64,000 bases of DNA from Rhodovulum steppense (GTDB lineage: Bacteria; Pseudomonadota; Alphaproteobacteria; Rhodobacterales; Rhodobacteraceae): the NCBI RefSeq assembly GCF_004339675.1, contig NZ_SLVM01000013.1, positions 1 to 64,000 of the forward strand. Reading direction: 5' to 3'. The position numbers and the translations under genes were made by a program. This document shows positions 49,560 through 64,000 of the stretch, in pieces. The notes beneath the pieces are model-generated. The model was not told the origin of the DNA, made no database searches, and saw nothing but the letters and a program-made list of their open reading frames with translations. Position 1 is the stretch's first letter. The number at the start of each line of letters is the position of its first letter.

Positions 49560-49772
49560 TCACGCCTTGCGCTGGGCGGTGTTCAGATACCGGCACTTCC
49601 AGTTGGCAACGGTCCAGTTCGGATGCGTCGCGACCCACTTGGCCAGTTCCGGCTGGGCCCCCATCATGCAGGTCATGGGTGTGATGTCGGCATAGATGAG
49701 GCTGCGTTCCTCGCAGGCCCCTTGTTCATTCTGCGCCAGTCCAAAGCAGGCGACGAAGACAAGTTCGATCAT
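49560..49772 (-). CDS. Small cysteine-containing protein, function unknown
   Basis: This 70-residue protein begins MIELVFVACFGLAQ and has Cys residues in GACEERS, PMTCMMGAQPEL and NWKCRYL. The opening hydrophobic stretch may be a signal peptide. Similar small proteins with PMTCMMGAQPELAKW occur, as far as I recall, in Rhodobacterales. The ATG at 49772 lies close to GAGGTCGCC. Four cysteines suggest disulfides in the periplasm. Confidence 0.65.
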   Translation of the reverse strand: MIELVFVACFGLAQNEQGACEERSLIYADITPMTCMMGAQPELAKWVATHPNWTVANWKCRYLNTAQRKA

Positions 49773-49921
49773 GGCGACCTCGCGCTTTCCGGTTCCTGCC
49801 TCAAGGGTGGCAGGCAATCCTGCACCGATGGTTAACCGGGCGGGCGCATCGCGCAATGCTGCGCCGCAGCAATAACTCTACTGCAAATGCAAAGTGGAAA
49901 TCGGCGGCGGTTTCGCTGCGC

Positions 49922-49948: not shown

Positions 49949-50740
49949 CTATCCCTTGCGCCGCATCAACCCCCGCGCCGGGTCATAGCCCAACAGCGCC
50001 AGCAGGAAGAACGCGACCGCCCCCGTCCCGACCCACAGCAACGCCCAGCCGTTGAACTGCGCATAAAGCGCAAAGCGGATCAGTTCGACCGCATGGGTAA
50101 AGGGGTTCACTGCGCAGATGTCGCGCAGAAGCCGCGAGGCTTCGGCCATCTTCCACAGCGGATAAAGCGCGGTCGACAGGAAGAACATCGGGAAGATGAC
50201 GAAGTTCATCACGCCCGCGAAATTCTCGAGCTGCCGGATCGTGGACGAGATAAGCAAGCCCAGCGCCCCCAGCATCAAGCCGCTGAGGACAAGCGCCGGC
50301 AGGACATAGACATAGCCCATCGCGGGCATCTTGATGCCCATCAGCGCCGCGATGCCGAGAAAGGCATAGACCTGCAACAGCGACACCGCCACGCCCGCCA
50401 TCAGCTTGCAGAACAGAAGCCACCAGCGCGGCCGGGGCGAGGTCAGCAACAGCCGCATCGAGCCCATTTCCTGATCGTAGACCAGGGACAGCGAGGATTG
50501 CATCCCGTTGAAAAGCTGGATCATCGCGCACAGGCCCGGCACGATATAGACCTCGTAGGTGATATAGGTCTGGTAGGGCGGCGTGATCGACAGGCCCAGC
50601 GCCGCGCGGAACCCCGCGGCAAAGATCACCAGCCAGACCAGCGGGCGCACCAGCGCCGAAAGGAAACGGCCGCGGTTCTGAAGAAACCGCATCGCCTCGC
50701 GCAGGACGATGGCATGAAGCGCGACCAGCCAGGCCTTCAT
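49949..50740 (-). CDS. ABC-2 type transporter permease, PQQ-alcohol dehydrogenase associated
   Basis: This 263-residue membrane protein has six hydrophobic segments and the ABC-2 arrangement, ending LGYDPARGLMRRKG. It resembles the 'alcohol ABC transporter permease' (PedC) found beside PQQ dehydrogenases. In Pseudomonas putida PedA1A2BC is needed for growth on low lanthanum. It overlaps its ATPase gene by four bases and is the last gene of the operon. Transport of a lanthanide species is inferred, not shown. Confidence 0.88.
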   Translation of the reverse strand: MKAWLVALHAIVLREAMRFLQNRGRFLSALVRPLVWLVIFAAGFRAALGLSITPPYQTYITYEVYIVPGLCAMIQLFNGMQSSLSLVYDQEMGSMRLLLTSPRPRWWLLFCKLMAGVAVSLLQVYAFLGIAALMGIKMPAMGYVYVLPALVLSGLMLGALGLLISSTIRQLENFAGVMNFVIFPMFFLSTALYPLWKMAEASRLLRDICAVNPFTHAVELIRFALYAQFNGWALLWVGTGAVAFFLLALLGYDPARGLMRRKG

Positions 50741-51474
50741 GCTGCGGCCTCGTCATTGCCGCCGGTCATCTCGATGAAGGCGTCGATCAGATCGCCCTCG
50801 CCCGCGATCTCGGCGGCGCTGGCCTGTCGCAACACCCGGCCGCGATGCAGCACCACGACCTCGTCCGAGGGCTCGATCTCGTCGACCAGATGGGTGGCCC
50901 ACAGAACGCTCAGCCCTTCGGCCGCCAGATCGTGGACATGGGCGGTGATCGACCGGCGCGCGGCGGTGTCCAGCCCCACGGTCGGTTCGTCCAGCAACAG
51001 CACCTCCGGCGCATGGATCAGCGCGCGGGCGATCTCCATCCGCCGCCGGTGCCCGCCATTCAGCGCGCGCACCTTCTCGCCCGCGCGCTCGCGCATGTTC
51101 AACCGCTCCAGCGCGGCGTCGATACGCGCGGTGGCCTCGCGCCCCGCCATGCCGTGCAGCGCCGCGAAATAGCGCATGTTGCGCATGACCGTCGTGTCCA
51201 GATCCAGCGTCGGCTGCTGGAACACCACCCCGATCCGGGCCAGCGCCGCGCGCGGATCGCGGGCCAGATCGAAGCCCGCGACCTCGATCCTGCCCTCGCG
51301 CGTCACAAGAAGCCGCGTGAGCAGCGAAAACAGCGTCGATTTCCCCGCGCCGTTCGGCCCCAGCAGCGCGCAGAACCGCCCCCGGTCCAGCGCAAAGGAC
51401 ACATCGTCCAGCGCCCGCCTTGCCCCGTAGGACAGGCTGACATTGGAAACGCAAAGGGCGGGAGTGCGGGTCAT
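50737..51474 (-). CDS. ABC transporter ATPase, PQQ-alcohol dehydrogenase associated
   Basis: This 245-residue ATPase has Walker A GPNGAGKST, a signature NGGHRRRMEIARAL (LSGGQ variant), and Walker B EVLLLDEPTVGLD. It is the type I recall as PedB/PQQ_ABC_ATP, next to its ABC-2 permease. It overlaps both neighbours by four bases (50737-50740 and 51471-51474), so all three are translated together. Together with the permease it forms the first of two transporters in this operon. Confidence 0.9.
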   Translation of the reverse strand: MTRTPALCVSNVSLSYGARRALDDVSFALDRGRFCALLGPNGAGKSTLFSLLTRLLVTREGRIEVAGFDLARDPRAALARIGVVFQQPTLDLDTTVMRNMRYFAALHGMAGREATARIDAALERLNMRERAGEKVRALNGGHRRRMEIARALIHAPEVLLLDEPTVGLDTAARRSITAHVHDLAAEGLSVLWATHLVDEIEPSDEVVVLHRGRVLRQASAAEIAGEGDLIDAFIEMTGGNDEAAA

Positions 51475-52082
51475 ATGTCCTGTCCGTTGGCAGGGGTGAG
51501 GATAGCGGGCCGGTCGGCAAGGTCCAGAATCCGGGTCGCCAGCCGTTCGGCCTCCGCTCGGGAATGGGTCACGAACAGCGTGGCGGGCCGTTCCTCGGCG
51601 ATCAGCCGCTCGGTCAGCGCCAACATCGCCTCGGCGGTGGCAGGGTCGAGCGAGACGAAGGGCTCGTCCATGATCAGAAGCTCGGGATGCCCGGCAAATG
51701 CCCGCGCGAGCGCAAGCCGCCGCTGCTGGCCCAGCGACAACTGGCCGGGAAAGGCATGCGCCTTGTCGCCGATGCCGACCCGGGCCAGCATGTCGCGCGC
51801 CGCCCGCCGCGTCAGGCCCGGATGAACCAGCGTCAGGTTCTTCAGCACGCTGCGCCAGGGCAGAAGGGTCGGCTCCTGGAACACCATCGCGATCCGGCCG
51901 GGCCGCTCGACATTGCCTTCGAACCGCTCGTCCAGCCCCGCAACGATGCGCAGAAGCGTCGTCTTGCCGATTCCGGAGGGACCAAGGATCGCCACCGTCT
52001 CGCCCTTGGCGACCTCGAAGGCCACGCGGCCCAGAACGGGGGTATCGCCAAAGGACTTACCGCGGATATCGACCCGGATCAT
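51471..52082 (-). CDS. ABC transporter ATPase, NitT/TauT type
   Basis: This 203-residue ATPase has GPSGIGKTT (Walker A), LSLGQQRRLALARAF (signature) and LLIMDEPFVSLD (Walker B). It is short for the family (usually about 250), as the N-terminal and C-terminal ends are trimmed. It pairs with the next two genes (permease and binding protein) as a nitrate/sulfonate/taurine-type importer. The start at 52082 is the only one giving MIRVDIRG; the track's longer frame is spurious. Confidence 0.9.
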   Translation of the reverse strand: MIRVDIRGKSFGDTPVLGRVAFEVAKGETVAILGPSGIGKTTLLRIVAGLDERFEGNVERPGRIAMVFQEPTLLPWRSVLKNLTLVHPGLTRRAARDMLARVGIGDKAHAFPGQLSLGQQRRLALARAFAGHPELLIMDEPFVSLDPATAEAMLALTERLIAEERPATLFVTHSRAEAERLATRILDLADRPAILTPANGQDI

Positions 52083-52828
52083 GCCACCCGCCAGCGCCGC
52101 GCGTGCCGCTCCCACGGTTGCAGGATCAGCCATTCGACGGCCAGCATCACCACGATGAAGGACAGCGCGTAGATCAGCACCATGCCCACGTCGAACAGCT
52201 GGAAGTAAAGGTGGATCTTGAAGCCGATCCCGTTCGAGCGGCCCAGGAACTCGACCACCAGGACGATCTTCCAGATCACCGCCACGCCGCCCCGCGCCGC
52301 CGCCGCCACGAAGGGCGCAAGCTGGGGCAACAGCACATGGCGCAGCCGCGCCCAGCCGGACATGCGATAGACCCGCGCCATGGCGTCTAGGTCGGCCGAC
52401 AGCGCCCGCGCGCCCTCGCGGATGGTGACGGTGACGTTCGGCACCTTGTTCAGCGTCACCGCCACGATGGCCGCTGTCTCGTTCAGCCCGATCCACAGAT
52501 AGCACAGCACGATCAGCACCAGCGCGGGCAGGTTCAGGAACACCACCAGCCACGGATCCAGCCAGCGGTTCAGCCGCTCGAACCGGCCCATCAGCAGGCC
52601 AAGGATCAACCCCAGGCTCATCGCAAGGCAGAACGCCCAGATCACCCGGACCAGCGTCTGGCCCAAGTGATGGGGCAGCGCGCCCGAGCGGATCTCGGCC
52701 AGCCATGGCCCCACCAGCGCAAAGGGCTGGGGCAGGATCTGCGGATCGGCGGTCAGCGCCGCGGCTATGATCCACAAGAGCAGAAGACCGGAAAGCGAGA
52801 TCGCCGGGACGGCGAGGCGGCCAAGCAT
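52079..52828 (-). CDS. ABC transporter permease, NitT/TauT type
   Basis: This 249-residue membrane protein has six hydrophobic segments and the binding-protein-dependent permease region EGARALSADLDAMARVYRMSGW (cytoplasmic loop that meets the ATPase). It overlaps the ATPase gene by four bases and follows the binding-protein gene by nine. The partner ATPase and binding protein identify it as a complete importer. Confidence 0.9.
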   Translation of the reverse strand: MLGRLAVPAISLSGLLLLWIIAAALTADPQILPQPFALVGPWLAEIRSGALPHHLGQTLVRVIWAFCLAMSLGLILGLLMGRFERLNRWLDPWLVVFLNLPALVLIVLCYLWIGLNETAAIVAVTLNKVPNVTVTIREGARALSADLDAMARVYRMSGWARLRHVLLPQLAPFVAAAARGGVAVIWKIVLVVEFLGRSNGIGFKIHLYFQLFDVGMVLIYALSFIVVMLAVEWLILQPWERHARRWRVA

Positions 52829-52837
52829 CGCCGCCGC

Positions 52838-53812
52838 TCACTCCAGTTCCAGGAACAGGCCCGCAGGCAGGGTCGAGGCCCGCCCCACCAGTTCCTCGCC
52901 GCCCAATTCGGCCATCAGCGCCAGAAAGCGGTCCGCCGCTTCGGGATCGACATTGCCCGGCGCCGGGATCCCCGCGCGGTAATCGTCGCGCAGCCGCTCG
53001 AACTCGGCATCGTTGGCGGCGTTCATGATCGGCCGGATCGCCTCCCATGCGGCATCGCTGTCCAGCAGCATCGCCTTGGCCTCGCGCGAGGCGGCGTAAA
53101 AGGCTTCGACGACGCCGGGATTCTCGGCCAGGAAGCTTTCCTTGAGCACATAGCTCAGAAGCGGCGTGTCGGGATCAAGCCCCAGCGCCGCCGAGGCATC
53201 CGCCACCGAGATCAGTTCGCGCATGCCCGCGGCCTTCATCTTGGCGAGGAAGTGCCAGAAATTGATCGCCCCGCCGGTTTCGCCCGACAACCCCGCCTTG
53301 AAGATCAGCGGCGGCGCGCCATAGACCTGTTCGGTCTCGGCGGCCAGATCCATGCCGTATTCGCGCGCGGCATAGGCCCGCAGCACCAGCCAGCTCTTAT
53401 CCAGCGGCCCACCCGCGATGCCGATCTTCTCCCCTGCCAGATCCTTCAGCGTCTGCGCCGGGCTGTCCGCGGGCACCACCAGACCACCCACCGCCCGCGA
53501 ATAGGGGATGGCGATATAGTCACGGCCCGCAGCGCGCTGGCGGGCGACCCAGATCCAGTCGACCACCATCAGGTCGGCCTCGCCCCCCTCGACCGCGACG
53601 CGCGTGGCGCCGTTATCGGCAAAGGGCGACAGCACCAACTCGAACCCATGCGCGGTATCGAGCCCGTTTTCCATGATCGTCGTCAGTTCCCAGGTCACGG
53701 TGCCCAACTGCAACACGGCCGCACGCAGCCGCGGCAAATCCTCGGCCCAGGCAGCGGCGGCGCTCCATAGCGTCACAAGGGCCGCAAGCGCGCCCGTCAC
53801 TCGGTTCAACAT
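52838..53812 (-). CDS. ABC transporter substrate-binding protein, NitT/TauT type
   Basis: This 324-residue exported protein has a signal peptide (about 1-23, ending AAAWA) and the SsuA/TauA-like fold with FADNGATRVAVEGGEADLMVVDWIW and GLVVPADSPAQTLKDLAGEKIGI. It is the first gene of the minus-strand ABC operon and diverges from DUF3280 at 54016. Its ligand is unknown; the operon context suggests a compound linked to PQQ-dependent methanol oxidation, possibly a metal chelate. Confidence 0.87.
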   Translation of the reverse strand: MLNRVTGALAALVTLWSAAAAWAEDLPRLRAAVLQLGTVTWELTTIMENGLDTAHGFELVLSPFADNGATRVAVEGGEADLMVVDWIWVARQRAAGRDYIAIPYSRAVGGLVVPADSPAQTLKDLAGEKIGIAGGPLDKSWLVLRAYAAREYGMDLAAETEQVYGAPPLIFKAGLSGETGGAINFWHFLAKMKAAGMRELISVADASAALGLDPDTPLLSYVLKESFLAENPGVVEAFYAASREAKAMLLDSDAAWEAIRPIMNAANDAEFERLRDDYRAGIPAPGNVDPEAADRFLALMAELGGEELVGRASTLPAGLFLELE

Positions 53813-54015
53813 GGTCTTCCTCCCGGTTTCTTGCGCGCGTTTCCGGTGTCGTTCTTGTCCGCCCCGTGCCGTCCGGACCGGCGGGCAGTATCGCCGCCAG
53901 CCCCCTCCCCGGCAGCGCAGGCAGAGTTTCGAGGATCGTGCCAGAGCGCAGAGCAAATGGGAAACCGATACTTAAGGCGCATTGCGACCTGTCCGGGCGG
54001 GGATAAGCTCGGCCG
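53813..54015. promoter_or_regulatory. Divergent promoter region of the two lanthanide-locus operons
   Basis: This 203-base gap separates the minus-strand ABC operon from the plus-strand DUF3280-SRPBCC-propeller-SoxYZ operon. Both must start here. I see no strong -10/-35 pair or operator that I would name. The minus side carries GGGAGGAAG before the binding-protein ATG. It is the obvious place for a lanthanide or methanol switch. Confidence 0.55.
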
Positions 54016-54531
54016 ATGAACCTGCGCCCCCGTCTTGCGGCTCTGGCCGCGCTGATCGCTCTGGCCGCGGCCCCGCTTGCGGCGCAGGTGCCGTTGAACC
54101 GCGACGCCCAGGTGGCGTTCTTCGGGATCGCGTTTCTCGATACCTCGACCGAAGGCGCCTATTTCGGCGCGCGTGAGGACGAACAGGCGCGCATCCTTCT
54201 GCTGGAGGACGAGGTGCGCGCGCGCTTTGGCGCCGAGGGGCTTGCGCTGATGGACAACGCGCCGGTTGCCGAGGATCTGGCCCGCATCAAGAACCCTGCC
54301 AATTGCTATGGCTGCGAGTTGCGCATCGCAGACAAGCTGGGGGCCGATTACGTTCTGGTCGGCGAGGTGCAGAAAGTCTCGAACCTGATCCTGTCGATGA
54401 ACCTGGTGATGCGCGATGTCGAAAGCGGCGCGATGGTGAGGGGACTGTCGGTCGATATCCGCTCGAACACCGACGAGTCCTGGCTGCGGGGCATGCGCTA
54501 CATCCTGAAAAACAATTTCTTCAAGGAATGA
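54016..54531 (+). CDS. DUF3280/DUF2380-like periplasmic protein
   Basis: This 171-residue protein has a signal peptide (about 1-23, ending PLAAQ) and a domain with VAFFGIAFLDTSTEG, NPANCYGCELRIADKLGADYVLVGEVQKVS and the closing SWLRGMRYIL. The Cys-x2-Cys pair in NCYGCE is the only chemical feature. Such proteins recur beside PQQ dehydrogenases. It is the first gene of the plus-strand operon. Confidence 0.75.
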   Translation: MNLRPRLAALAALIALAAAPLAAQVPLNRDAQVAFFGIAFLDTSTEGAYFGAREDEQARILLLEDEVRARFGAEGLALMDNAPVAEDLARIKNPANCYGCELRIADKLGADYVLVGEVQKVSNLILSMNLVMRDVESGAMVRGLSVDIRSNTDESWLRGMRYILKNNFFKE

Positions 54532-54542
54532 GGGAGGATTTC

Positions 54543-55085
54543 GTGAAGCTACAGGGGAGTCTGGCCGCGCTGACGGCCGTGGCGGTGATGCTGCCCGCTC
54601 TGGCACTGGCGCATGGTCCGACGCGCCAGAAGGTCGACGTGACCGCCGAGCTTGCCGCCGAGCCGGCCGAGGTCTGGGCGGTCGTGGGCGACTTTCAGGA
54701 CATGGGGTGGCACCCGGCGGTTCACGCCACCACGGGCGAGGGCGGCAACACGCTTGACGCGACGCGGCTGCTGACCCTGGGCGCGGCGGACGGGCCGACG
54801 ATTGCCGAAGAGCTTTACAAATACGATGCCGGGAAGATGACCTATTCCTACCGGATCACCGAGGTCGCGGTCGAGGTTCTGCCGGTGACGAACTATTCCG
54901 CGCATCTGACCGTCAAACCGCGCGCTGGCGGCGGGTCGGTCGTGGAATGGCGCGGGGCCTTCTATCGCGGCTATCCCAACAACGATCCGCCCCCCGAACT
55001 GAACGACGAGGCCGCGATCAAGGCCGTGACCGCGGTCTATGAGGCGGGCCTGTCCGCACTGGTCGACCGCTTTGGCGCGCCCTGA
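54543..55085 (+). CDS. Exported SRPBCC (START-like) family protein
   Basis: This 180-residue protein has a signal peptide (about 1-23, ending ALALA) and a START/Bet v1-like fold with DVTAELAAEPAEVWAVVGDF opening, then a hydrophobic cavity pattern. The start is GTG at 54543, five bases after the ribosome-binding site AGGGAGG (54531-54537); an ATG at 54528 would cover that site. It may bind a small hydrophobic ligand or cofactor in the periplasm. Role unknown. Confidence 0.8.
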   Translation: MKLQGSLAALTAVAVMLPALALAHGPTRQKVDVTAELAAEPAEVWAVVGDFQDMGWHPAVHATTGEGGNTLDATRLLTLGAADGPTIAEELYKYDAGKMTYSYRITEVAVEVLPVTNYSAHLTVKPRAGGGSVVEWRGAFYRGYPNNDPPPELNDEAAIKAVTAVYEAGLSALVDRFGAP

Positions 55086-56013
55086 CATCCTGGCGCTGGC
55101 GCTTGGCTGGGCGCTCGCCGCGCTGCCTGCGGCGGGCAACATTGCCTATGTGACCAACCAGAATGGCGGATCGGTCTCGATCCTCGATCTGGCCGCGGGA
55201 ACCGAACTTGCGCAGGTGCCGCTGCCCGGCCAGCCCGCCGGGATCGCGGTTGCGGCGGACGGCTTCTTCGCCGTCTCGCCCGACACCAAGTCGCTGCGCC
55301 GCTTCGATGCGGCGGGGAACGAGACCGGGCAGGTCGCGCTGGACGGTGGTCCCATCGGCATCGCCCATGATCCGCTGCGCGGACGGGTCTTCGTGTCGGA
55401 CTGGTACAACGCAAGGCTCTGGGTGGTGGATGCCGCCTCCATGTCGCTGACCGGAACGCTGGAAACGGGCACCGCACCGGCCGGACTGGCGGTGTCGCCG
55501 GATGGGCGCTGGCTTGCCTCGGCCGACAAGGAGGCGGGGCAGGTCTCGATCTTCGATCTCGAAAGCCTTGCGCTGGCCGGGACCGTGCCGGTCGGCATCC
55601 GGCCCTTCGGGCTGGGCTTTGCGCCGGACGGGCGGCTGTTCGTCGGCAATGTCGGCTCGAATGACGTGAGCGTGGTGGATGTGGCCGAACGCCATGTTCT
55701 GGCCACCCTTCCGGTCGGCGATCAACCCTATGGCGTGGCGTTCGCGCGTGGCCGGGCCTTTGTCACCAATCAGCATGCCGACACGGTCAGCGTGATCGAC
55801 CTTGGCACGCTTGCACCGCTTGGCGAAATCGCGGTCGGCGAATATCCCGAAGGGATCGACGCCACCGCCGATGGCGCGACCGTCGTGGTCGCCAACTGGT
55901 TTTCCAACAGCGTCAGCCTGATCGACGCCGAAACGCTGGCCGTGACCGCCGAGATTGCCACCGGCGACGGCCCGCGCGCCTTTGGCCGTTTCATTGCAGA
56001 ACGGGGGGACTGA
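55072..56013 (+). CDS. YVTN beta-propeller protein, PQQ-catabolism associated
   Basis: This 313-residue exported protein (signal about 1-21, ending LPAAG) is built of propeller blades: NIAYVTNQNGGSVSILDL, RVFVSDWYNARLWVVD, LFVGNVGSNDVSVVD, AFVTNQHADTVSVIDL. It belongs to the family I recall as PQQ-dependent catabolism-associated beta-propeller. I chose TTG at 55072 because it gives MARPDILALALGWALA, a clean signal peptide; an ATG at 55039 lies deep in the previous gene. It overlaps the SRPBCC gene by 14 bases. Possible roles are metal binding or electron relay. Confidence 0.82.
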   Translation: MARPDILALALGWALAALPAAGNIAYVTNQNGGSVSILDLAAGTELAQVPLPGQPAGIAVAADGFFAVSPDTKSLRRFDAAGNETGQVALDGGPIGIAHDPLRGRVFVSDWYNARLWVVDAASMSLTGTLETGTAPAGLAVSPDGRWLASADKEAGQVSIFDLESLALAGTVPVGIRPFGLGFAPDGRLFVGNVGSNDVSVVDVAERHVLATLPVGDQPYGVAFARGRAFVTNQHADTVSVIDLGTLAPLGEIAVGEYPEGIDATADGATVVVANWFSNSVSLIDAETLAVTAEIATGDGPRAFGRFIAERGD

Positions 56014-56017
56014 GCCC

Positions 56018-56827
56018 ATGCGCCGCCTTTTCCTTGCCCTCGCAATGACACTGGCACCCGGCCCCGCCCTAGCCCAGACCGCATGGGACGAATTGCGGCC
56101 GATGCTGTTTGCCGAGCGCGCGTTGATCCCGGCCGGCCCGCATATCGCCATCGCCAGCCCCTATCGCACCGCGGATGATGCAAGGACGCCGATCGGGATC
56201 CATGTCGAGGGGCCCGAGGGCCGGCTGATCGACAGGGTGACGGTGATCCTTGACGAGAACCCGATGCCGGTTTCGGCGGTGGTCGAGCTGGCCCGTCCGC
56301 TGCCCGCGCTGACTTTCGACCTGACGCTGCGCTTCAACGGCGCGACGGCGCTGCATGTGGTTGCCGAAACGACAGATGGCAGGCTGTTCCTGGCCGAGAC
56401 CCATGTCAAGACCAGCGGTCAGGGCGCCTGCGCCGCGCCGCCCGGCACCGATCCTGTCGCCGCGCTGGCCGATCTGGGCCAGATGAGTATCGAACTGACA
56501 CCGCTGACGCACGCGGGCGGGGCGGCGGCGCGGCTGGGGGCAGTCGCCACACGCACCGGTCGGATCGAGGTCGATATCCGCCACCCCAGCCATTCCGGCC
56601 TGCAAAAGGACCAGATCTCGCTGTTGTTCATCCCGCCCCGCTATGTCGAGACGGTCGAGGTCGCGCTGGATGGCCAGCCCTATGCAACGATCACCGGCAG
56701 CATCTCGCTGAGCGAGAACCCCCGCATCGGCCTGTCCGCCCCGGGCGCAACCCGGCTGGTCGAGGTCGCGATGAAAGACACCAGCGGCACCGTTACCACC
56801 GCCAGCCGCCAGATTCCGGGCTACTGA
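56018..56827 (+). CDS. Quinoprotein-associated SoxYZ-like carrier
   Basis: This 269-residue periplasmic protein (signal 1-20, ending ALAQ) fuses a SoxY-like domain (about 22-135) to a SoxZ-like domain (about 155-265). Cys138, in TSGQGACAAPPG, lies between them, where SoxY has its sulfur-binding cysteine in a flexible GGCGG arm. RHPSHSGLQKD in the SoxZ part is typical. The family is found with PQQ dehydrogenases and is presumed to carry a substrate on that cysteine. Its stop overlaps the convergent CXXCW-protein gene by seven bases. Confidence 0.85.
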   Translation: MRRLFLALAMTLAPGPALAQTAWDELRPMLFAERALIPAGPHIAIASPYRTADDARTPIGIHVEGPEGRLIDRVTVILDENPMPVSAVVELARPLPALTFDLTLRFNGATALHVVAETTDGRLFLAETHVKTSGQGACAAPPGTDPVAALADLGQMSIELTPLTHAGGAAARLGAVATRTGRIEVDIRHPSHSGLQKDQISLLFIPPRYVETVEVALDGQPYATITGSISLSENPRIGLSAPGATRLVEVAMKDTSGTVTTASRQIPGY

Positions 56828-57375
56828 GCGCCCGGCTCGCCGGGCTCTGGCGCTGCCCGCTCCAGCGGCAGGGCAAGGAACGTCCATCCATCGGTGCCTT
56901 CGGGAAACCAGTAGACGCGCGCATGACCGTATTCGAGCGCGCGTTTAGCGGCGTTCCAGCTCATCCAGCATTCATCGAGGCAGAAGAATACAAGCGGCCG
57001 CGCCAGGTCCCCGCCGGTCGCGCGGTCAAGGCCGTCGCGGAAATAGCCGTGCGTTACCTCCGCAATCTCGCCATAGCCCACATTCGGCAACCAGATCGCG
57101 CCGGGGATCGACAGGCGCGGCGGATCGCGCCAGATCGTGCCATCGGGCAGGTTCGGCGGCTTCGGTGCACGCGGCATGACATCGACGAACACCGCCCCGC
57201 CCGCTTGCCAGAGCGCATGCGCCTGTTCGGGGTCGATCACGGTGGCGCCCGCCAGCGTTTCGGGCACCGGGCCGCGATACTCGTCCATCCGGTAGCCCGG
57301 GGGTTCCGGCACCTCGGCCAGCCCCTGCCCCGCCCCAAGCCCCAGCACAAGTGCAAGGGCCGCAGCGCGGATCAT
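56821..57375 (-). CDS. Rhodanese-like CXXCW-motif protein, PQQ-catabolism associated
   Basis: This 184-residue exported protein (signal about 1-20, ending GLA) has a rhodanese-like fold. Its reactive loop is FFCLDECWMSWNAAKRA, with Cys132 and Cys136 separated by three residues. This matches the PQQ-dependent catabolism-associated family named for a CXXCW motif. Rhodaneses carry persulfide on such a cysteine, which invites a link with the SoxYZ-like carrier. It overlaps xoxJ by four bases and is the last gene of the minus-strand xox operon. Confidence 0.85.
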   Translation of the reverse strand: MIRAAALALVLGLGAGQGLAEVPEPPGYRMDEYRGPVPETLAGATVIDPEQAHALWQAGGAVFVDVMPRAPKPPNLPDGTIWRDPPRLSIPGAIWLPNVGYGEIAEVTHGYFRDGLDRATGGDLARPLVFFCLDECWMSWNAAKRALEYGHARVYWFPEGTDGWTFLALPLERAAPEPGEPGAQ

Positions 57376-58244
57376 TGCGCCAGGTCCCGCACCACCTTGC
57401 CGTAATCGTCCACCAGCGGCACGCCCGCCTCGTGCAGGATCGCGTTGATCTCGTCCTGATGGCGGCGGATCAACGAGTTCAACTGGCGCTGCCAGACCTT
57501 CTCGTTCAGCCGCACCCCCATGGTGATGCGATAGAACAGCCGCGGCGGCAATTCTTCGTGGACCAGCGGGATGACCTTGAATTCGGGGAAGTCGTTCTTG
57601 ACCAGCGGCCCGCCGATCGGCCCCCACAGGATCGCGCCGTCGATCTCGCCCGCCCTCAGCGCGGCCAGCATGTCGGGGCCCGGCGCCTCGTAGCGGCGAT
57701 CCACCATCAGGTCATAGGCCAGCGCCTTGCCGATCAGACCATGCCGCGCCATGTGCGAGGCAGGCGGCGTGCCCGCGACGACACCCAGCGCGCGCCCCTG
57801 CAAGGCCGGGTCGGACAGGGCCTCGACAGTCGCGAGCGGGCCATCCGCATCCACGATCAGCACATAGGTCGAGGTAAAATAGTGGTTGGTGTTCAGCACC
57901 AGCTCGTGCCCCTGGGCAAAGCCGATGATGACATCGCACTTGTTGGCACGCAGGGTATTCCGCACGAAGCCGGTCGCCATCGGATACCAGGTATATTCGA
58001 CCGGCAGTCCAAGCTTCTCCGCGAAAAGCTCCGCAAGCCGGTTCTCGAACCCGCGCCCCTGATCGTCCGACATCGGATAGCTGGCAGGATCGGCGCAAAC
58101 CCGAAACGCGGTCTTCGATATCAGATCCGAGGTTTGCGCCTGCCCCAGAACCGGCGCAAAACTCAGAAAGAGTGTGCCTATCGCGGCCGCCAGACGCGCC
58201 TCAACCACCGGCCATACACTCTGCTTCGAAGGAAGCAACCGCAT
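57372..58244 (-). CDS. xoxJ: XoxJ-like periplasmic binding protein
   Basis: This 290-residue protein has the type 2 periplasmic binding fold with FRVCADPASYPMSDDQGRGFENRLAEL and LVLNTNHYFTSTYVLIV. It is of the MoxJ/XoxJ type, a presumed chaperone or maturation factor for the methanol dehydrogenase. The ATG at 58242-58244 overlaps the xoxG end by 44 bases; a GTG at 58208 would reduce this to eight and would leave a shorter N-region ahead of the signal peptide. It follows xoxG on the same strand. Confidence 0.87.
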   Translation of the reverse strand: MRLLPSKQSVWPVVEARLAAAIGTLFLSFAPVLGQAQTSDLISKTAFRVCADPASYPMSDDQGRGFENRLAELFAEKLGLPVEYTWYPMATGFVRNTLRANKCDVIIGFAQGHELVLNTNHYFTSTYVLIVDADGPLATVEALSDPALQGRALGVVAGTPPASHMARHGLIGKALAYDLMVDRRYEAPGPDMLAALRAGEIDGAILWGPIGGPLVKNDFPEFKVIPLVHEELPPRLFYRITMGVRLNEKVWQRQLNSLIRRHQDEINAILHEAGVPLVDDYGKVVRDLAQ

Positions 58245-58731
58245 CCGACTTATCTTCTCTTTTGGCCGGACGGCCCCGCTGCAACGCTCCATCGCCGCGG
58301 GCCTTGAGATAGACATAGATGTCGTCGATGTAGCACATCACGTTCTTGTTCTGTCCGAAGGTCGGCATCACATTCTGATGCGAGACGTCGACATTCTCGA
58401 TACCGTTCGACACGATATAGACGAAGTCGTAGTAATCCATCCGCTCGACGGCGTCCTTCAGCGGCGGCGCGTAGGTCGAGCCCATGCCGTCAGGCCCGTG
58501 GCAGACATGGCACTCCGCGTGATAGCGGCGGAAGCCTGAAAAAGTCAGCCAATCGACCGTGCCGTCCTCGGCGATGAAATAGGTGGGTACCCCGTCCTCG
58601 GTGAAGTACCGCCCATCCTCCTTGTAGGCGGCAGGACCGTTGCCCGGCAGCCCCCTGTTCTCGGTGGCGCCGCCAGCGCTGGCCAGCCCCGCCACTGCGC
58701 CGAAAACCAGCGCCAGTCGCAACCTCTTCAT
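58201..58731 (-). CDS. xoxG: Cytochrome c, XoxG-like electron acceptor
   Basis: This 176-residue exported cytochrome (signal about 1-22) binds one haem at Cys74-His75-Val76-Cys77-His78, with Met122 in VMPTFG as the likely sixth ligand. It accepts electrons from XoxF. Two additional cysteines (133 and 172) lie outside the haem motif. GDPCQSTSRQ before the ATG at 58731 is leader, not protein. It is between xoxF and xoxJ on the same strand, 74 bases from xoxF. Confidence 0.9.
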   Translation of the reverse strand: MKRLRLALVFGAVAGLASAGGATENRGLPGNGPAAYKEDGRYFTEDGVPTYFIAEDGTVDWLTFSGFRRYHAECHVCHGPDGMGSTYAPPLKDAVERMDYYDFVYIVSNGIENVDVSHQNVMPTFGQNKNVMCYIDDIYVYLKARGDGALQRGRPAKREDKSDAVASFEAECMAGG

Positions 58732-58805
58732 CTTTCCTCCCTGTCGCGATGTGGACTGGCACGGGTCACCCCGTGCCAATCCGGCTCCTCCCCTCGCGCC
58801 GCCGA

Positions 58806-60605
58806 TCAGTCCGGCAGCTTGAACACGGTCAGCTGACCGCCGAGTGCGGTATAGTCGCTGAGCGCGGCATAACCGCCCACGGCACCCAGACCATCATTCG
58901 GGTTGGTCAGGCCCGCCGCCAGACCGATGCCGGCCCAGCCGCCGACACCCGACAGGATGCCGACATACTGCTTGCCGTCATGCTCGTAGGACATCACGTT
59001 CCCGATGACGCCCGACGGGGTCTTGAAGCGGTAGAGTTCTTCGCCGGTCTCGGCGTCCACGGCCTTGAGGAAACCCTCGAGCGTGCCGTAGAACACAACG
59101 TCGCCCGCGGTAGCCAGGGCGCCCGACCAGACCGAGAACTGCTCGGGGATCGACCACTTGATTTCGCCCGCAAGCGCGTCCCAGGCGATGAAGTTGCCCA
59201 TCCCGCCATGGCTGTCCGGCGCCGGATACATCGACAGCGTGGCGCCCACATAGGGTTGCCCGGCGGTGTAGCTGACGCGGAAGGGTTCGTAATCCATGCA
59301 AACATGGTTCGTCGGCACATAGAACAGGCCCGACTGCGGCGAGTAGGCCGCGGGTTGCTGGTCTTTCGTGCCCAGCGCGGCGGGGCAGATGCCAGTGGTG
59401 TTGACATCCTCGCCGTTCTGCGCGGTCGAGTAATCAGCGACCACCATCGGGCGGCCATAGGTCTCGGACGCAGGGTCCATGTCGACATGGGTCGCCCAGT
59501 TCACGGCCGGATCGTATTTCTCGGCGACCAGCAGTTCGCCGGACACGCGATCCAGCGTGTAGGCAAAGCCGTTGCGGTCGAAGGTGACCAGCAGCTTGCG
59601 CATCTCGCCGTCGATTTCCTTGTCGACGAGAATGTTTTCATTCACGCCGTCATAGTCCCACTCGTCATGCGGGGTCTTCTGGTAGACCCACTTGGCCATG
59701 CCGGTATCCGCATCGCGCGCGATGATCGTCATCGACCACTTGTTGTCGCCCGGACGCTGGGACGGGTTCCAGGTCGAGGGGTTGCCGGTGCCGTAATAGA
59801 TCAGGTTCAGATCGGGATCGTAGGAGTACCAGCCCCAGGTCGTGCCGCCGCCGATCTTCCACTGGTCACCTTCCCAGCTGTCGATCGAGGAGTTGGCCGG
59901 AACCGGCTTGCCCAGCGACATGGTGTTCTCGTCGAACAGGATCTGGTCGTCGGGGCCGACCGAATAGCCGCGCCAAGCAAGCTCGCCGGTTTCCATGTCA
60001 TAGGCGGAGATGTGGCCCTGAACTCCGAACTCGCCACCCGAGATGCCGACGATGATCTTGTCCTTGACCGGCATCACGGTCGCGGTGTTCGTCTCGCCGA
60101 TCGAGGGATCGCCATTCACCGCGGTCCACTTGACTTCGCCCGTCTCGGCGTTCAGCGCCACGATGGTGGTATCGGCCTGATGCAGGAAGATCGTGTTGTT
60201 GGCATAGGCCACACCGCGGTTCACGGTGTCGCAGCACATCACCGGTATGACGCTGCTATCCTGCTGGGGCTCGTATTTCCACTTGATCCGGCCGTGATCG
60301 TTCAGATCCAGTGCGTACACGATATTCGGGAACGGCGTGTGCACATACATCGTGTCGCCGATCACCAGCGGGCTGCCCTCATGGCCCCGCAGAACGCCGG
60401 TCGAGAAGGTCCAGGCCACCTGCAGGTTGCCGACGTTCTCGCGGGTGATCTGGTCAAGCCCCGAATAGCGATGGTTGGCGTAGTTGCCGGTCTGGATGAC
60501 CCATTGCGTCGGGTCGTTCATCAGTTCAAGCAGTTCGTCGTTCGCAAGTGCCGCAGACCCGGCGCAAAGCGCGGCCACGGACGTGAAAGCGAGCAGTTTC
60601 TTCAT
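58806..60605 (-). CDS. xoxF: Lanthanide-dependent methanol dehydrogenase XoxF
   Basis: This 599-residue periplasmic PQQ enzyme oxidises methanol. After a signal peptide (1-21, ending ALA) it has the vicinal disulfide pair Cys124-Cys125, and the metal ligands Glu192 (GGEFGV), Asn275 (GTGNPS) and catalytic Asp317. Asp319, two residues on in WDYDG, is the extra aspartate that marks lanthanide-dependent enzymes; calcium enzymes have Ala there. The ATG at 60603-60605 follows GGGAGAG. First gene of the xoxF-xoxG-xoxJ-CXXCW run. No mxa or pqq genes are in the window. Confidence 0.96.
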
Positions 60606-60856
60606 TTTTCTCTCCCTTAAGTTCTGATTCCGTCGAAGGGGCCGCAGACGGGTGCGGCTTGCCACCGCCCTTCGCCTGACCGCCAACCCCTGCCGCACCG
60701 AAACATCTGGTCCTCCCTTCGGTGCTGCACTCGTTCAAATCGCGTCAGTCCTCCTCTCTTTCCGTGATCACGTTAACTGCCGTGGCGCGGTGGTATCAGC
60801 GCGCGTTGCATGATTTTCTGCGCCGTTTGCCGATCCGCACCTCGCCCCGTTCCGCA
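60606..60856. promoter_or_regulatory. xoxF upstream region
   Basis: These 251 bases between xoxF and fghA hold the xoxF promoter and leader. The ribosome-binding site is AAGGGAGAG before the ATG. No transcription-factor site is recognisable by eye, and no good hairpin was found. fghA ends at 60857 with no clear terminator, so fghA transcripts could read into xoxF. Confidence 0.5.
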
Positions 60857-61693
60857 TCAGTTGCTCCGCCGGTGCAGGCGCTCGGCATGCCAGCCGACAT
60901 GGTCCCCTGCAAAGCTTGCGACGAAGTAATAGCTGTGGTCATAACCCGGCTGCATCCGGACCAGCCCGGCCTGACGCCGACGCGCCAGTACCGAGGCCAA
61001 CGCCTCTGGCCGCAGAAGGTCAAGGAACTGATCTCCGGCCCCTTGGTCGATCAGGATCGCATCCTTCCAACCATGCTCCTCAAGCAGCAGACTCGAATCA
61101 TAACATGCCCATGCCGATTCGTCGTCGCCGAGATAGGCACTCAACTGCTTGCGGCCCCAGTCCGAGCGGGTCGGGTTGGCGATCGGCGCAAAGGCAGACA
61201 GCGAATCGAACCGGTCGGGATTGCGCAGCGCCAGAGTAAGCGCCCCATGCCCACCCATCGAATGCCCGGTCACGCCATGGACATCGGCAATCGGCAGGTT
61301 GTCCAGAACCAGCCCGCGCAATTCCTCCAGCACATAGTCATACATCCGGTAATGCGCCGTCCAGGGCGCGCGCGTGGCATTGACGTAGAACCCCGCGCCC
61401 TGGCCCAAATCATAAGCATCGTCATCGGCCACCCCCTCGCCACGCGGCGAGGTGTCGGGGAAGATCACGGCGATCCCATTCTCGGCCGCGTGCCGCTGGA
61501 ACCCGCCCTTCACCATTGCGTTCTCATGGGTGCAGGTCAGACCCGAGAGATACCACAGTACCGGAACCGGCCCGTCCTCGGCCTGGGGCGGCAGGTAGAC
61601 GCCGAAGGTCATGTCCACGCCGCAGACTTGCGACGGATGGGTGCAGACCATCTGAACCCCGTCGAAGCAGCGATTCTGGGAAATGACCTCCAT
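60857..61693 (-). CDS. fghA: S-formylglutathione hydrolase
   Basis: This 278-residue serine esterase splits S-formylglutathione into formate and glutathione, the last step of glutathione-linked formaldehyde oxidation. The nucleophile is Ser145 in GHSMGGHGA, and CTHENAMVKGGFQ and the GYDHSYYFVASFAGDHVGWHA C-terminal segment carry the other family motifs. It follows the class III alcohol dehydrogenase gene by nine bases and surely works with it. Confidence 0.96.
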   Translation of the reverse strand: MEVISQNRCFDGVQMVCTHPSQVCGVDMTFGVYLPPQAEDGPVPVLWYLSGLTCTHENAMVKGGFQRHAAENGIAVIFPDTSPRGEGVADDDAYDLGQGAGFYVNATRAPWTAHYRMYDYVLEELRGLVLDNLPIADVHGVTGHSMGGHGALTLALRNPDRFDSLSAFAPIANPTRSDWGRKQLSAYLGDDESAWACYDSSLLLEEHGWKDAILIDQGAGDQFLDLLRPEALASVLARRRQAGLVRMQPGYDHSYYFVASFAGDHVGWHAERLHRRSN

Positions 61694-61702
61694 CGGCGCG
61701 GC

Positions 61703-62815
<1,113 letters not shown>

Positions 62816-62984
62816 CTTCGCTAACTCCTCCCCAGAACCTGACTTCTTATTTTTCTTAAGCATGGCGAGTATGCGAAGGCACACAGTGACCGGCAATTGC
62901 GACCTTGGTGGGTATTGGCCAGAACGGTCCCTTCGTGGACTTCGAGCCGATCCGCGTTAGACTTGCGCCGAGGGAGGAGAATCC
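62816..62984. promoter_or_regulatory. Divergent region adhI / 62985 gene
   Basis: This 169-base gap drives adhI to the left and the periplasmic gene to the right. The right ribosome-binding site is GGGAGGAG (62972-62979). TTCTTATTTTTCTTAAG (62845-62861) is an AT-rich tract next to the adhI start. No operator was recognised. Confidence 0.45.
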
Positions 62985-63596
62985 ATGACCGCACGCGCTC
63001 TCACCGGGGCTGCGCTCTTAGCGCTAGGAGCCGCAACCGTTGCCCCGGCCGCCGATTTCTCGGACCCCACCTGGCCCTGCATCCAGCGCAAGGTGGCACA
63101 ACTGTCCCCCGGGATCATGTGGCCCCATCCGATCGAGGCACAAAGTTTCGACGTCGAGACCGAAGCCGCGGTGAAGGAGCTTGTCGGCCGGATGGTGCTG
63201 CGTCGCATTCCGGTCGAGGATCTGGAACCGACGGTGACCGCCTTCACCGCAGCCCACGGCAATGACAGCGCCCTTCTGGGCCATGTCTTCATGTCGGCCT
63301 TCGAGATCATGTCGCGCCAGCGGCAGACCGTAATGAAGGGCATCGAAGACTACTCGCTCTCGCAGATCGCGCTTTCCGAACGGATCGAGGCCACACGGAT
63401 CGAGATCAACACCCTGCTGGACGCCGAGCCGCTCGACCATGACCGGATCGACGCTGCCGAGGAACAGCTTGCCTGGGACGAACGCATCTATACGGATCGC
63501 GCGCAGTCGCTGACCTATGTCTGCGAGACGCCGGTTATCCTGGAACAGCGACTTTTCGCGATCGGGCAGATGCTTGCCCGCTCAGTCACCGAATGA
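62985..63596 (+). CDS. Exported helical protein, function unknown
   Basis: This 203-residue protein has a signal peptide (1-22, ending APAA) and then a mostly helical sequence with SDPTWPCIQRKVAQLSPG near the start and VCETPVILEQRLFAIGQ near the end; its two cysteines (about 32 and 178) could form a disulfide. I recognise no domain. It is adjacent to the MBL-fold gene and to adhI, suggesting a periplasmic role in the C1 system. Confidence 0.75.
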   Translation: MTARALTGAALLALGAATVAPAADFSDPTWPCIQRKVAQLSPGIMWPHPIEAQSFDVETEAAVKELVGRMVLRRIPVEDLEPTVTAFTAAHGNDSALLGHVFMSAFEIMSRQRQTVMKGIEDYSLSQIALSERIEATRIEINTLLDAEPLDHDRIDAAEEQLAWDERIYTDRAQSLTYVCETPVILEQRLFAIGQMLARSVTE

Positions 63597-63614
63597 AAGG
63601 GGGGAAGGCGGGGA

Positions 63615-64000
63615 TCATTCCCATTCCAGTTCGGTGAAGGCAACGGTTGCGTTGCGCGCATTATGCTCATCGAACAATTGCCAGCGGTCGCGTTCTTCAG
63701 CGGCAATTCCGGCCACTGCATCGCTCAGCCTTTCCCCGCGGCCGATGGCGGCGTGCGTGTCCTGCGCCAGCACGTCAAGATACCGCGCCGTATCCTGCGC
63801 ACCGTCGGGCCAGGGCAATACCGGCCCGCCATGGCCCGGCACTACGCCGCTGGCCGGGATCGTCACAAGTTCGGCCAGCACGACCTGCCAGCCCCGCAGC
63901 GATCCATCGAGGGTCGGCAGATGCTTGTCGAAGACCAGATCACCTACGAAAAGCACGCCGCTGTCCCGGTCCAGCACGGTCAGGTCGGTCCCGGTATGGG
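63615..64000 (-). CDS. MBL-fold hydrolase, quinoprotein-relay type (5' end outside window)
   Basis: The C-terminal 128 or so residues of a metallo-beta-lactamase-fold protein on the minus strand. HTGTDLTVLDRDSGVLFVGD at the cut end carries a zinc-ligand His and Asp, and VPGHGGPVLPW has the final His. It continues beyond base 64000. The gene is next to the xox cluster, and MBL hydrolases of this type accompany SoxYZ-like carriers beside PQQ dehydrogenases. A GTG at 63977 would give a fragment lacking the first ligand, so it is not the start. Confidence 0.8.
   Translation of the reverse strand, partial: HTGTDLTVLDRDSGVLFVGDLVFDKHLPTLDGSLRGWQVVLAELVTIPASGVVPGHGGPVLPWPDGAQDTARYLDVLAQDTHAAIGRGERLSDAVAGIAAEERDRWQLFDEHNARNATVAFTELEWE

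What the first reader, a model, noticed from the sequence alone, without database searches (positions are those of the whole stretch)
54016..64000. Possible thiol-based relay around XoxF: SoxYZ-like carrier, rhodanese-like protein, MBL hydrolase
The SoxYZ-like protein has one cysteine (Cys138) placed like SoxY's carrier cysteine. The CXXCW protein is a rhodanese-like fold with Cys132 and Cys136. An MBL-fold hydrolase, the class that includes persulfide and thioester enzymes, is at the right edge. All are exported or adjacent to xoxF. Their chemistry fits a carrier that holds a C1 or sulfur adduct on a protein thiol and hands it to a hydrolase. This is an untested idea and the main candidate here for an undescribed system.
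Basis: inference. Interest (0 to 1): 0.8.

Follow-up and report, generated by a model that had tools for sequence, protein, structure and literature searches.

The report
Thiol-carrier module beside lanthanide methanol dehydrogenase
Next to a rare-earth-type methanol-oxidising enzyme sits a gene set that is named in databases but has no tested function: a SoxYZ-like protein with one cysteine and a metal-dependent hydrolase, which in the genomes sampled are found almost only where such rare-earth-type alcohol enzymes occur.

Summary
In detail: the SoxYZ-like protein has one Cys138, the rhodanese-like protein Cys132/Cys136, and the MBL, completed beyond the window (63615-64652), keeps its metal ligands. 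The proteins are not undescribed: NCBIfam names them (TIGR04557, TIGR04559, TIGR03865; 'quinoprotein relay system') and a 2026 review discusses P. putida and M. extorquens copies. My searches found no experiment assigning a function. Additions: MBL2 occurs only with the carrier (11 of 11 and 26 of 26 genomes). In two overlapping genome draws 50 of 51 carrier genomes with a PQQ alcohol dehydrogenase hold a lanthanide-type one, against 25 of 74 without carrier (p=1.3e-14; type by a recalled motif). XoxF also occurs without the module. The Cys is kept in 56 of 56 carriers found by profile. Three families without known function travel with it, two with invariant Cys. Disulfide maturation is weakened: dehydrogenases of genomes lacking the module mostly have the same CC pair. 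Most likely an accessory carrier-hydrolase cycle; whether the adduct is aldehyde-derived or sulfur is unresolved, and export of this window's MBL is unproven.

The parts
56018..56827 (+). SoxYZ-like carrier, paralogue B (SYZ_B), signal-like N-terminus, single Cys138 in G-A-C-A-A-P
   Evidence: TIGR04557 158.6 bits vs cut-off 140; Pfam SoxY + SoxZ; AlphaFold2 pLDDT 83.1, Foldseek best to chains of SoxYZ entries; Cys in 30 of 30 orthologue rows that cover the position, 2 further rows are gaps
56821..57375 (-). rhodanese-like 'PQQ_CXXCW' protein, signal-like N-terminus, Cys132/Cys136 (CX3CW)
   Evidence: TIGR03865 229 bits vs 128; both Cys 43 of 43; weak sequence kinship to rhodaneses such as YgaP, E about 7e-5
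63615..64000 (-). C-terminal part of the MBL-fold hydrolase MBL2 (gene runs to 64652 on the contig)
   Evidence: TIGR04559 366 bits vs 280; metal ligands H136 H138 D140 H141 H219 D238 H274 each 75 of 75
62985..63596 (+). EXP203, signal-like N-terminus, helical protein of unknown function, Cys32 and Cys180
   Evidence: present in 67 of 80 loci, both Cys 67 of 67; AlphaFold2 pLDDT 92.0, long helices; weak ZraP likeness
58806..60605 (-). XoxF, PQQ methanol dehydrogenase of the lanthanide type by motif (EWDYDG; vicinal CC); start approximate
   Evidence: TIGR03075 763 bits vs 480; motif read
58201..58731 (-). XoxG-type cytochrome c; start approximate
   Evidence: TIGR03874 242 bits vs 162
57372..58316 (-). 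XoxJ-type periplasmic binding protein; start uncertain
   Evidence: TIGR03871 282 bits vs 212
60857..61693 (-). FghA, S-formylglutathione hydrolase
   Evidence: TIGR02821 431 bits vs 282
61703..62896 (-). FlhA, S-(hydroxymethyl)glutathione dehydrogenase; start uncertain
   Evidence: TIGR02818 601 bits vs 544
55039..56013 (+). beta-propeller (YVTN-repeat) protein
   Evidence: TIGR02276 repeats; homologue found in 26 of 80 loci, SYZ_B in 32
54528..55085 (+). SRPBCC protein (MxaD-like by recall)
   Evidence: Pfam Polyketide_cyc2 116 bits
54016..54531 (+). DUF3280 protein
   Evidence: PF11684 169 bits

Best explanation
This is the 'quinoprotein relay' accessory module of lanthanide-type PQQ alcohol dehydrogenases. 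Its core is a fused SoxY-SoxZ-like carrier plus an MBL-fold di-metal hydrolase. Shown here: family identity, co-occurrence, conserved cysteine and metal ligands, and near-confinement to genomes with lanthanide-type enzymes. Inferred: it works as a carrier-hydrolase cycle, in which the carrier cysteine forms a covalent adduct with a reactive product of, or poison for, the lanthanide quinoprotein, and the MBL hydrolyses the adduct and frees the thiol. My preferred adduct is aldehyde-derived: aldehyde plus carrier-SH gives a hemithioacetal, the lanthanide enzyme oxidises it to a carrier thioester, and the MBL releases the acid. That would be a side path or detoxification, not the main C1 route. 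Estimates: family identity 0.97, carrier-hydrolase cycle of some kind 0.6, aldehyde-derived adduct 0.35. The rhodanese-like protein would be an optional thiol-maintenance partner.
For: Families over cut-off. MBL2 over cut-off only in genomes with a fused carrier: 11 of 11 in 212 Alphaproteobacteria, 26 of 26 in 299 Pseudomonadota; the draws overlap. Carrier genomes holding a PQQ-ADH: 50 of 51 have the lanthanide type, against 25 of 74 without carrier, p=1.3e-14; by genus in the phylum draw 22 of 22 against 15 of 33, p=1.4e-5. Carrier Cys in 56 of 56 distinct carriers found by profile, 52 by a regular expression and 4 by eye; the 80 of 80 is by construction, because the search pattern holds the Cys. 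MBL ligands 75 of 75, and MBL and carrier frames within 500 bases in 70 of 75 loci. In 14 ExaF/PedH-setting loci fetched, the lanthanide-type gene is next to carrier and MBL in 9, farther off in the same locus in 3. The model's confidence falls from the Cys onwards to the SoxZ half. flhA and fghA, the glutathione-linked counterparts, are in the block.
Against: No adduct is reported in what I searched. Ca-type enzymes make the same aldehydes (recalled) without the module. 25 of 75 lanthanide-type genomes lack it, XoxF holders among them, so it is dispensable. XoxF1 of M. extorquens makes formaldehyde in growing cells (PMC6414531). The carrier's kin are sulfur carriers and the third protein is rhodanese-like. 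The MBL is not a glyoxalase II by score (33 vs 200.8). The window's MBL has no clear signal peptide. G257 keeps carrier and MBL with Ca-type motifs only in the enzymes typed; G111 has carrier and MBL2 but no dehydrogenase over cut-off; G192 has a carrier fragment (123.9 bits, at a contig end) and only other motif types. L224 has a carrier without an MBL in about 20 kb.
Confidence: 0.4

Rival explanations
1. Sulfur clearance: the carrier takes up sulfite or sulfane sulfur as SoxYZ does and MBL plus rhodanese-like protein remove it, protecting the lanthanide-PQQ site from nucleophilic sulfur.
For: Carrier halves are SoxY and SoxZ by Pfam and by profile to solved structures, and the fold search finds SoxYZ entries first; rhodanese-like third protein; hypothesis printed in PMC12997753 section 15, which cites inhibition of methanol growth by thiosulfate in Hyphomicrobium.
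Against: PQQ enzymes of other types should need it too, but none of the 30 PQQ-ADH genomes without a WD[YF]DG enzyme in the class draw has a carrier over cut-off (1 of 30 if the G192 fragment is counted). The rhodanese-like protein is over cut-off in only 6 of 16 carrier genomes there. The window's genome has a separate SoxY/SoxZ-like pair.
Confidence: 0.3
2. Maturation or redox repair of the dehydrogenase (for example its vicinal disulfide or cofactor loading).
For: Proposed in PMC12997753; conserved linkage to xoxFGJ; Cys-bearing partners EXP203 and EXP150.
Against: The vicinal CC pair is present in most typed enzymes of genomes without the module as well; XoxF-like enzymes occur without the module (for example G112, G022, G418, G271, G399); a hydrolase is not needed for disulfide chemistry.
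Confidence: 0.15
3. The two carriers have split roles: SYZ_A with MBL2 does the cycle, SYZ_B serves the neighbouring beta-propeller/SRPBCC/ABC block (lanthanide or cofactor handling).
For: SYZ_B is one clade (100/100) on a long branch, often lies beside beta-propeller genes, and scores close to the family cut-off.
Against: Its Cys is still kept in 30 of 30 covering rows; S. meliloti 1021 has the block without a SYZ_B hit.
Confidence: 0.15

Closest known systems
NCBIfam quinoprotein relay set: TIGR04557 carrier, TIGR04558/TIGR04559 metallohydrolases, TIGR03865 CXXCW protein
   Same: All three proteins are over the curated cut-offs; the same names appear in annotated plasmids with similar neighbourhoods.
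   Different: Two carriers in the block; the window's carrier is a divergent paralogue; MBL with a Cys-rich N-terminal stretch; CX3CW. S. abyssi pPABY2 also has two carriers, so this arrangement recurs in related bacteria.
P. putida PP_2666/PP_2677/PP_2678 (ped cluster) and M. extorquens META1p1703-1705
   Same: Same three protein kinds beside PQQ dehydrogenases (PMC12997753, passages and section 15).
   Different: XoxF/flh setting here; the thioredoxin-like gene reported in M. extorquens was not among the proteins that I scanned in this block.
Sox SoxYZ sulfur carrier
   Same: SoxY and SoxZ domains, single carrier Cys.
   Different: Fused, Cys internal in GGCSAP or GACAAP rather than C-terminal GGCGG (GGCGG recalled and in the model's name); below cut-offs for true SoxY and SoxZ.
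Glutathione formaldehyde pathway (FlhA, FghA)
   Same: Thiol adduct, oxidation, then hydrolysis is the proposed logic; both genes are in the block.
   Different: Small-molecule thiol, cytoplasmic, serine hydrolase (recalled); analogy only.

Membership tests
TIGR04557 fused SoxYZ-like carrier | score over 140 bits, one reading frame | tested here: met
   158.6 (window) and 274 (neighbour)
TIGR04557 fused SoxYZ-like carrier | carrier Cys conserved | tested here: met
   56 of 56 distinct carriers found by profile; 18 of 18 in A1; 30 of 30 covering SYZ_B rows. 80 of 80 SYZ_A is by construction of the search pattern.
TIGR04559 metallohydrolase 2 | score over 280 bits and metal ligands | tested here: met
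   366 bits; ligands 75 of 75
TIGR03865 CXXCW protein | score over 128 bits | tested here: met
   229 bits; motif is CX3CW
Quinoprotein relay, as a periplasmic system | all parts exported | tested here: inconclusive
   both carriers, the CXXCW protein and EXP203 begin with signal-like sequence by eye; the window's MBL does not
Quinoprotein relay, as a relay | adduct transfer between proteins | not testable with these tools
   needs biochemistry
True Sox carrier (SoxY TIGR04488, SoxZ TIGR04490) | scores over 125 and 76 bits | tested here: not met
   30.7 and 41.1 (window); 52.1 and 48.1 (neighbour)
Rhodanese PF00581 | score over 22.2 bits | tested here: not met
   18.4 bits; weak kinship to solved rhodaneses
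Glyoxalase II (TIGR03413) | score over 200.8 bits | tested here: not met
   33.1 bits
ZraP (EXP203) | score over 200 bits | tested here: not met
   21 bits; Foldseek probability up to 0.99 but E about 0.8

The most novel reading that the evidence does not exclude
A protein-bound, periplasmic counterpart of the glutathione formaldehyde pathway: lanthanide quinoproteins oxidise an aldehyde held as a hemithioacetal on the SoxYZ-like cysteine to a carrier thioester, and the MBL hydrolyses it, with EXP150, EXP203 and EXP230 as undescribed partners. It would explain why genomes with dehydrogenases of the lanthanide type, some of which oxidise aldehydes, are nearly the only ones to keep the module.
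Probability: 0.2. Interest if true: 0.85.

Novelty: new member of a known kind. Interest (0 to 1): 0.5.

Why it matters
The module carries the name 'relay' in annotation without a tested function in what I could search. Its near-confinement to genomes with lanthanide-type alcohol dehydrogenases, with a conserved thiol and a hydrolase that is not found without it, says that something about rare-earth quinoprotein chemistry may call for a covalent carrier. Sinorhizobium meliloti 1021, a laboratory strain, carries the block with one carrier found, so the question can be put to the test with two gene deletions and mass spectrometry.

Tried and rejected
Rejected: a chance assembly of unrelated genes (conserved order). 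Weakened: disulfide maturation (CC pair also in most typed enzymes of genomes lacking the module). Rejected: the rhodanese-like protein as core. Not pursued: SoxH as a family; the other MBL-like proteins of this genome; whether Halomonas strains with the carrier hold a lanthanide-type enzyme. A first script gave wrong frames for the XoxF and FlhA queries; corrected. A regular expression for the metal-bridging Asp was too loose and was replaced by an alignment. A genus table left out genera with neither feature; a hand-corrected test and a full recount agree. The 80 of 80 Cys count turned out to be by construction and was replaced by carriers found by profile (66 frames, 10 duplicates dropped).

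Papers. Searches. 'Quinoprotein relay' occurs in one paper of the library, PMC12997753 (passages and section 15 seen). 'SoxYZ-like carrier' occurs in three: that one and two Halomonas papers, PMC10568851 and PMC11970703 (one passage each seen), where it is a passing annotation. In PMC6382920 (one passage) such proteins serve as a tree outgroup. META1p1703-1705 are named in no other paper of the library. Also seen in passages: PMC12628762, PMC11582611, PMC10875860, PMC7391723, PMC6414531. I found no functional experiment; most subscription papers are not held, and not every listed paper was opened.
Full report
What is there. The window is G000:C13:1-64000 of a 3.66 Mb, 70-contig genome. Its nearest named relatives are Rhodovulum: the neighbour carrier is 98% identical to that of R. 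tesquicola and the window's carrier 96% to that of R. strictum. In contig order the block reads: DUF3280, SRPBCC, beta-propeller and SYZ_B (plus strand); the CXXCW protein, XoxJ, XoxG, XoxF, FghA and FlhA (minus); EXP203 (plus); MBL2 (minus, 63615-64652); then, past the window, SYZ_A (plus), EXP150 and EXP230 (minus), a hybrid kinase, a FIST/NosP-like protein and a LuxR-type regulator. The last three match NahK, NosP and ErdR models below their cut-offs; the names FlhS and FlhR are recalled.

The observation. Cys138 is the only cysteine of the SoxYZ-like protein, and Cys132/Cys136 are the only ones of the rhodanese-like protein. NCBIfam puts the three proteins over curated cut-offs in families already called the quinoprotein-associated SoxYZ-like carrier, the CXXCW protein and 'quinoprotein relay system zinc metallohydrolase 2'. 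The idea of a relay is thus in print as annotation. PMC12997753 (passages and section 15 read) discusses the same trio in P. putida and M. extorquens, with maturation, or protection of PQQ from sulfur, as suggestions.

The second carrier. SYZ_A, just beyond the edge, scores 274 bits against 158.6 for SYZ_B. A tree of 48 carriers puts the 18 SYZ_B rows in one clade (100/100) on a long branch. SYZ_A with MBL2 is therefore the typical pair and the window's carrier is the side copy.

Conservation. Since the pattern holds the Cys, 80 of 80 SYZ_A with Cys says nothing. Independent support: 56 of 56 distinct carriers found by profile. Presence in the 80 loci: MBL2 75, EXP150 69, EXP230 67, EXP203 67, SYZ_B 32; many loci are cut by contig ends. 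In the 47 with both flanks: MBL2 44, EXP150 42, XoxF 38, CXXCW 37, SYZ_B 27. The five without an MBL2 hit are L179, L201, L211, L212 and L224. Cys: CXXCW both 43 of 43, EXP203 both 67 of 67, EXP150 four in 69 of 69, EXP230 none conserved. MBL2 keeps seven metal ligands plus a further Asp in 75 of 75. In three 1.4 Mb genomes (L048-L050) the metal-bridging Asp is replaced (by eye).

Who has it. In 212 Alphaproteobacteria, TIGR04557 is over cut-off in 18; two (G072, G165) are dropped because a stop splits them into SoxY- and SoxZ-like halves, leaving 16. MBL2 is over cut-off in 11, all among the 16. CXXCW is over cut-off in 6, all among the 16. TIGR04558 is over cut-off in 2, both carrier genomes without MBL2. 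In 299 Pseudomonadota, 50 are over cut-off; 11 are dropped for the same reason, leaving 39. All 39 have a PQQ alcohol dehydrogenase, found in 83 of 299 (hypergeometric 5.6e-26). MBL2 is over cut-off in 26, all among the 39.

Lanthanide link. I read the residue two after the catalytic Asp in the dehydrogenases; WD[YF]DG is taken as the lanthanide type, a rule that I recall and did not test. It was not proven for the more distant enzymes that share it. Class draw: all 87 listed enzymes over cut-off in 50 genomes; 14 of 20 lanthanide-type genomes have the carrier, against 0 of 30 others (p=4.1e-8). The 30 include genomes with other Asp-bearing motifs, not only Ca-type ones. Two carrier genomes (G111, G160) have no dehydrogenase over cut-off and are outside this count. 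G192 has a carrier fragment under the cut-off at a contig end; counting it gives 14 of 20 against 1 of 30 (p=5.2e-7). Phylum draw: 123 enzymes typed in 83 genomes, at least one each but not every enzyme; 38 of 39 carrier genomes have the lanthanide type, 20 of 44 others do (p=9.9e-8). The draws overlap; the union gives 50 of 51 against 25 of 74 (p=1.3e-14). By genus in the phylum draw: 22 of 22 against 15 of 33 (p=1.4e-5). Genomes are related, so the p-values are too good. The exception, G257, keeps carrier and an MBL, but what look by eye like a chemoreceptor and an aldehyde dehydrogenase gene follow where relatives have the lanthanide-type enzyme. The lanthanide type is thus nearly necessary but not sufficient. 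The vicinal CC pair is seen in most enzymes of all types, so it does not explain the distribution.

Neighbourhoods. I fetched 20 further loci. Of the 14 in an ExaF/PedH setting, the lanthanide-type gene stands next to carrier and MBL in 9 (G041, G142, G226, G387, G441, G464, G335, G324, G265), within the same locus but about 10 kb off in 3 (G386, G400, G382), and outside the locus or absent in 2 (G361, G257). S. meliloti 1021 pSymB has the window's block without a SYZ_B hit. An Azospirillum plasmid has MBL2, carrier and EXP150 beside tetrahydromethanopterin-pathway genes, so the module is not tied to glutathione. EXP150 and EXP230 matches also sit by the carrier in G204, G048 and G397, the last outside the class.

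Structure. SYZ_B (47-row alignment) gives pLDDT 83.1 and pTM 0.80, with lower confidence from the Cys to the SoxZ half. Foldseek ranks chains of SoxYZ entries first (E about 1e-6, target TM 0.68-0.82), followed at only slightly weaker E by unrelated immunoglobulin-like domains, so the stronger evidence is by sequence. EXP203 is a bundle of long helices (pLDDT 92.0) without a significant match (none with E under 0.001).

Mechanism. A conserved thiol in a SoxY-type setting, on a protein without which the di-metal hydrolase is not found, argues for a covalent carrier cycle. I favour an aldehyde-derived adduct because some lanthanide-type enzymes oxidise aldehydes: purified XoxF1 oxidises formaldehyde, and ExaF reduces methanol sensitivity of a fae mutant (PMC6414531, abstract and passages). 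Against a main route: the same paper reports that XoxF1 makes formaldehyde and not formate in growing cells; the transposon table of PMC7391723 (passages) does not list these genes; RB-TnSeq in P. putida showed little effect, but without rare earths (PMC12997753). Sulfur clearance is close behind.

Weak points. Export of the Rhodobacterales MBL2: its N-terminus (MFEVIVTLCLAAAPGICRD...) is not a classical signal, and by a crude count 72 of 75 have three or more Cys in the 65 residues before the domain (the count can include untranslated upstream frame). Clear signals in several other lineages make a periplasmic origin likely. Signal peptides were judged by eye throughout.

Noticed in passing
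L009:5742-6092 (contig 65741-66091): EXP150, small protein with signal-like start and four Cys kept in 69 of 69, no Pfam or NCBIfam match; found by SYZ_A in Rhodobacterales, Rhizobiaceae, Azospirillum, a 1.4 Mb genome and one genome outside the class.
   Followed up: partly
window 62985-63596: EXP203, helical protein with a conserved DPTWPC-like motif and two invariant Cys, between flhA and the MBL; faint ZraP likeness.
   Followed up: partly
L009:6089-6766 (contig 66088-66765): EXP230, protein of unknown family (no Pfam or NCBIfam match) found in 67 of 80 loci beside EXP150.
   Followed up: partly
window 49560-49856 and MBL2 residues 1-62: A small ORF and the MBL2 N-terminus share a similar spacing of four Cys by eye; possibly one small domain. 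No Pfam match for the small ORF.
   Followed up: no
L229 (Salipiger abyssi plasmid pPABY2): The module with xoxFGJ-type genes, both carriers, MBL2, gfa and pqqABCDE lies on one 189 kb plasmid.
   Followed up: no
L048, L049, L050: MBL2 of three 1.4 Mb genomes has lost the metal-bridging Asp but keeps the HxHPDH and the other His ligands.
   Followed up: no
L009:6811-11150: Hybrid kinase, FIST/NosP-like protein and response regulator resemble the NahK, NosP and ErdR models below cut-off; the P. putida ped table lists a similar trio (PP_2663-2665, PMC12997753).
   Followed up: partly
window 49949-53956: PedBC-type ABC transporter (TIGR03861, TIGR03864) next to a second ABC set whose best models are for aliphatic sulfonates, below cut-off; substrate unknown.
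   Followed up: no
L367 (G257:C3): Carrier and MBL kept beside dehydrogenases with Ca-type motifs only, with a chemoreceptor-like gene where relatives have the lanthanide-type enzyme.
   Followed up: yes
G000:C23:44078-44686: The same genome also has a split SoxY/SoxZ-like pair below the fused-carrier cut-off.
   Followed up: no
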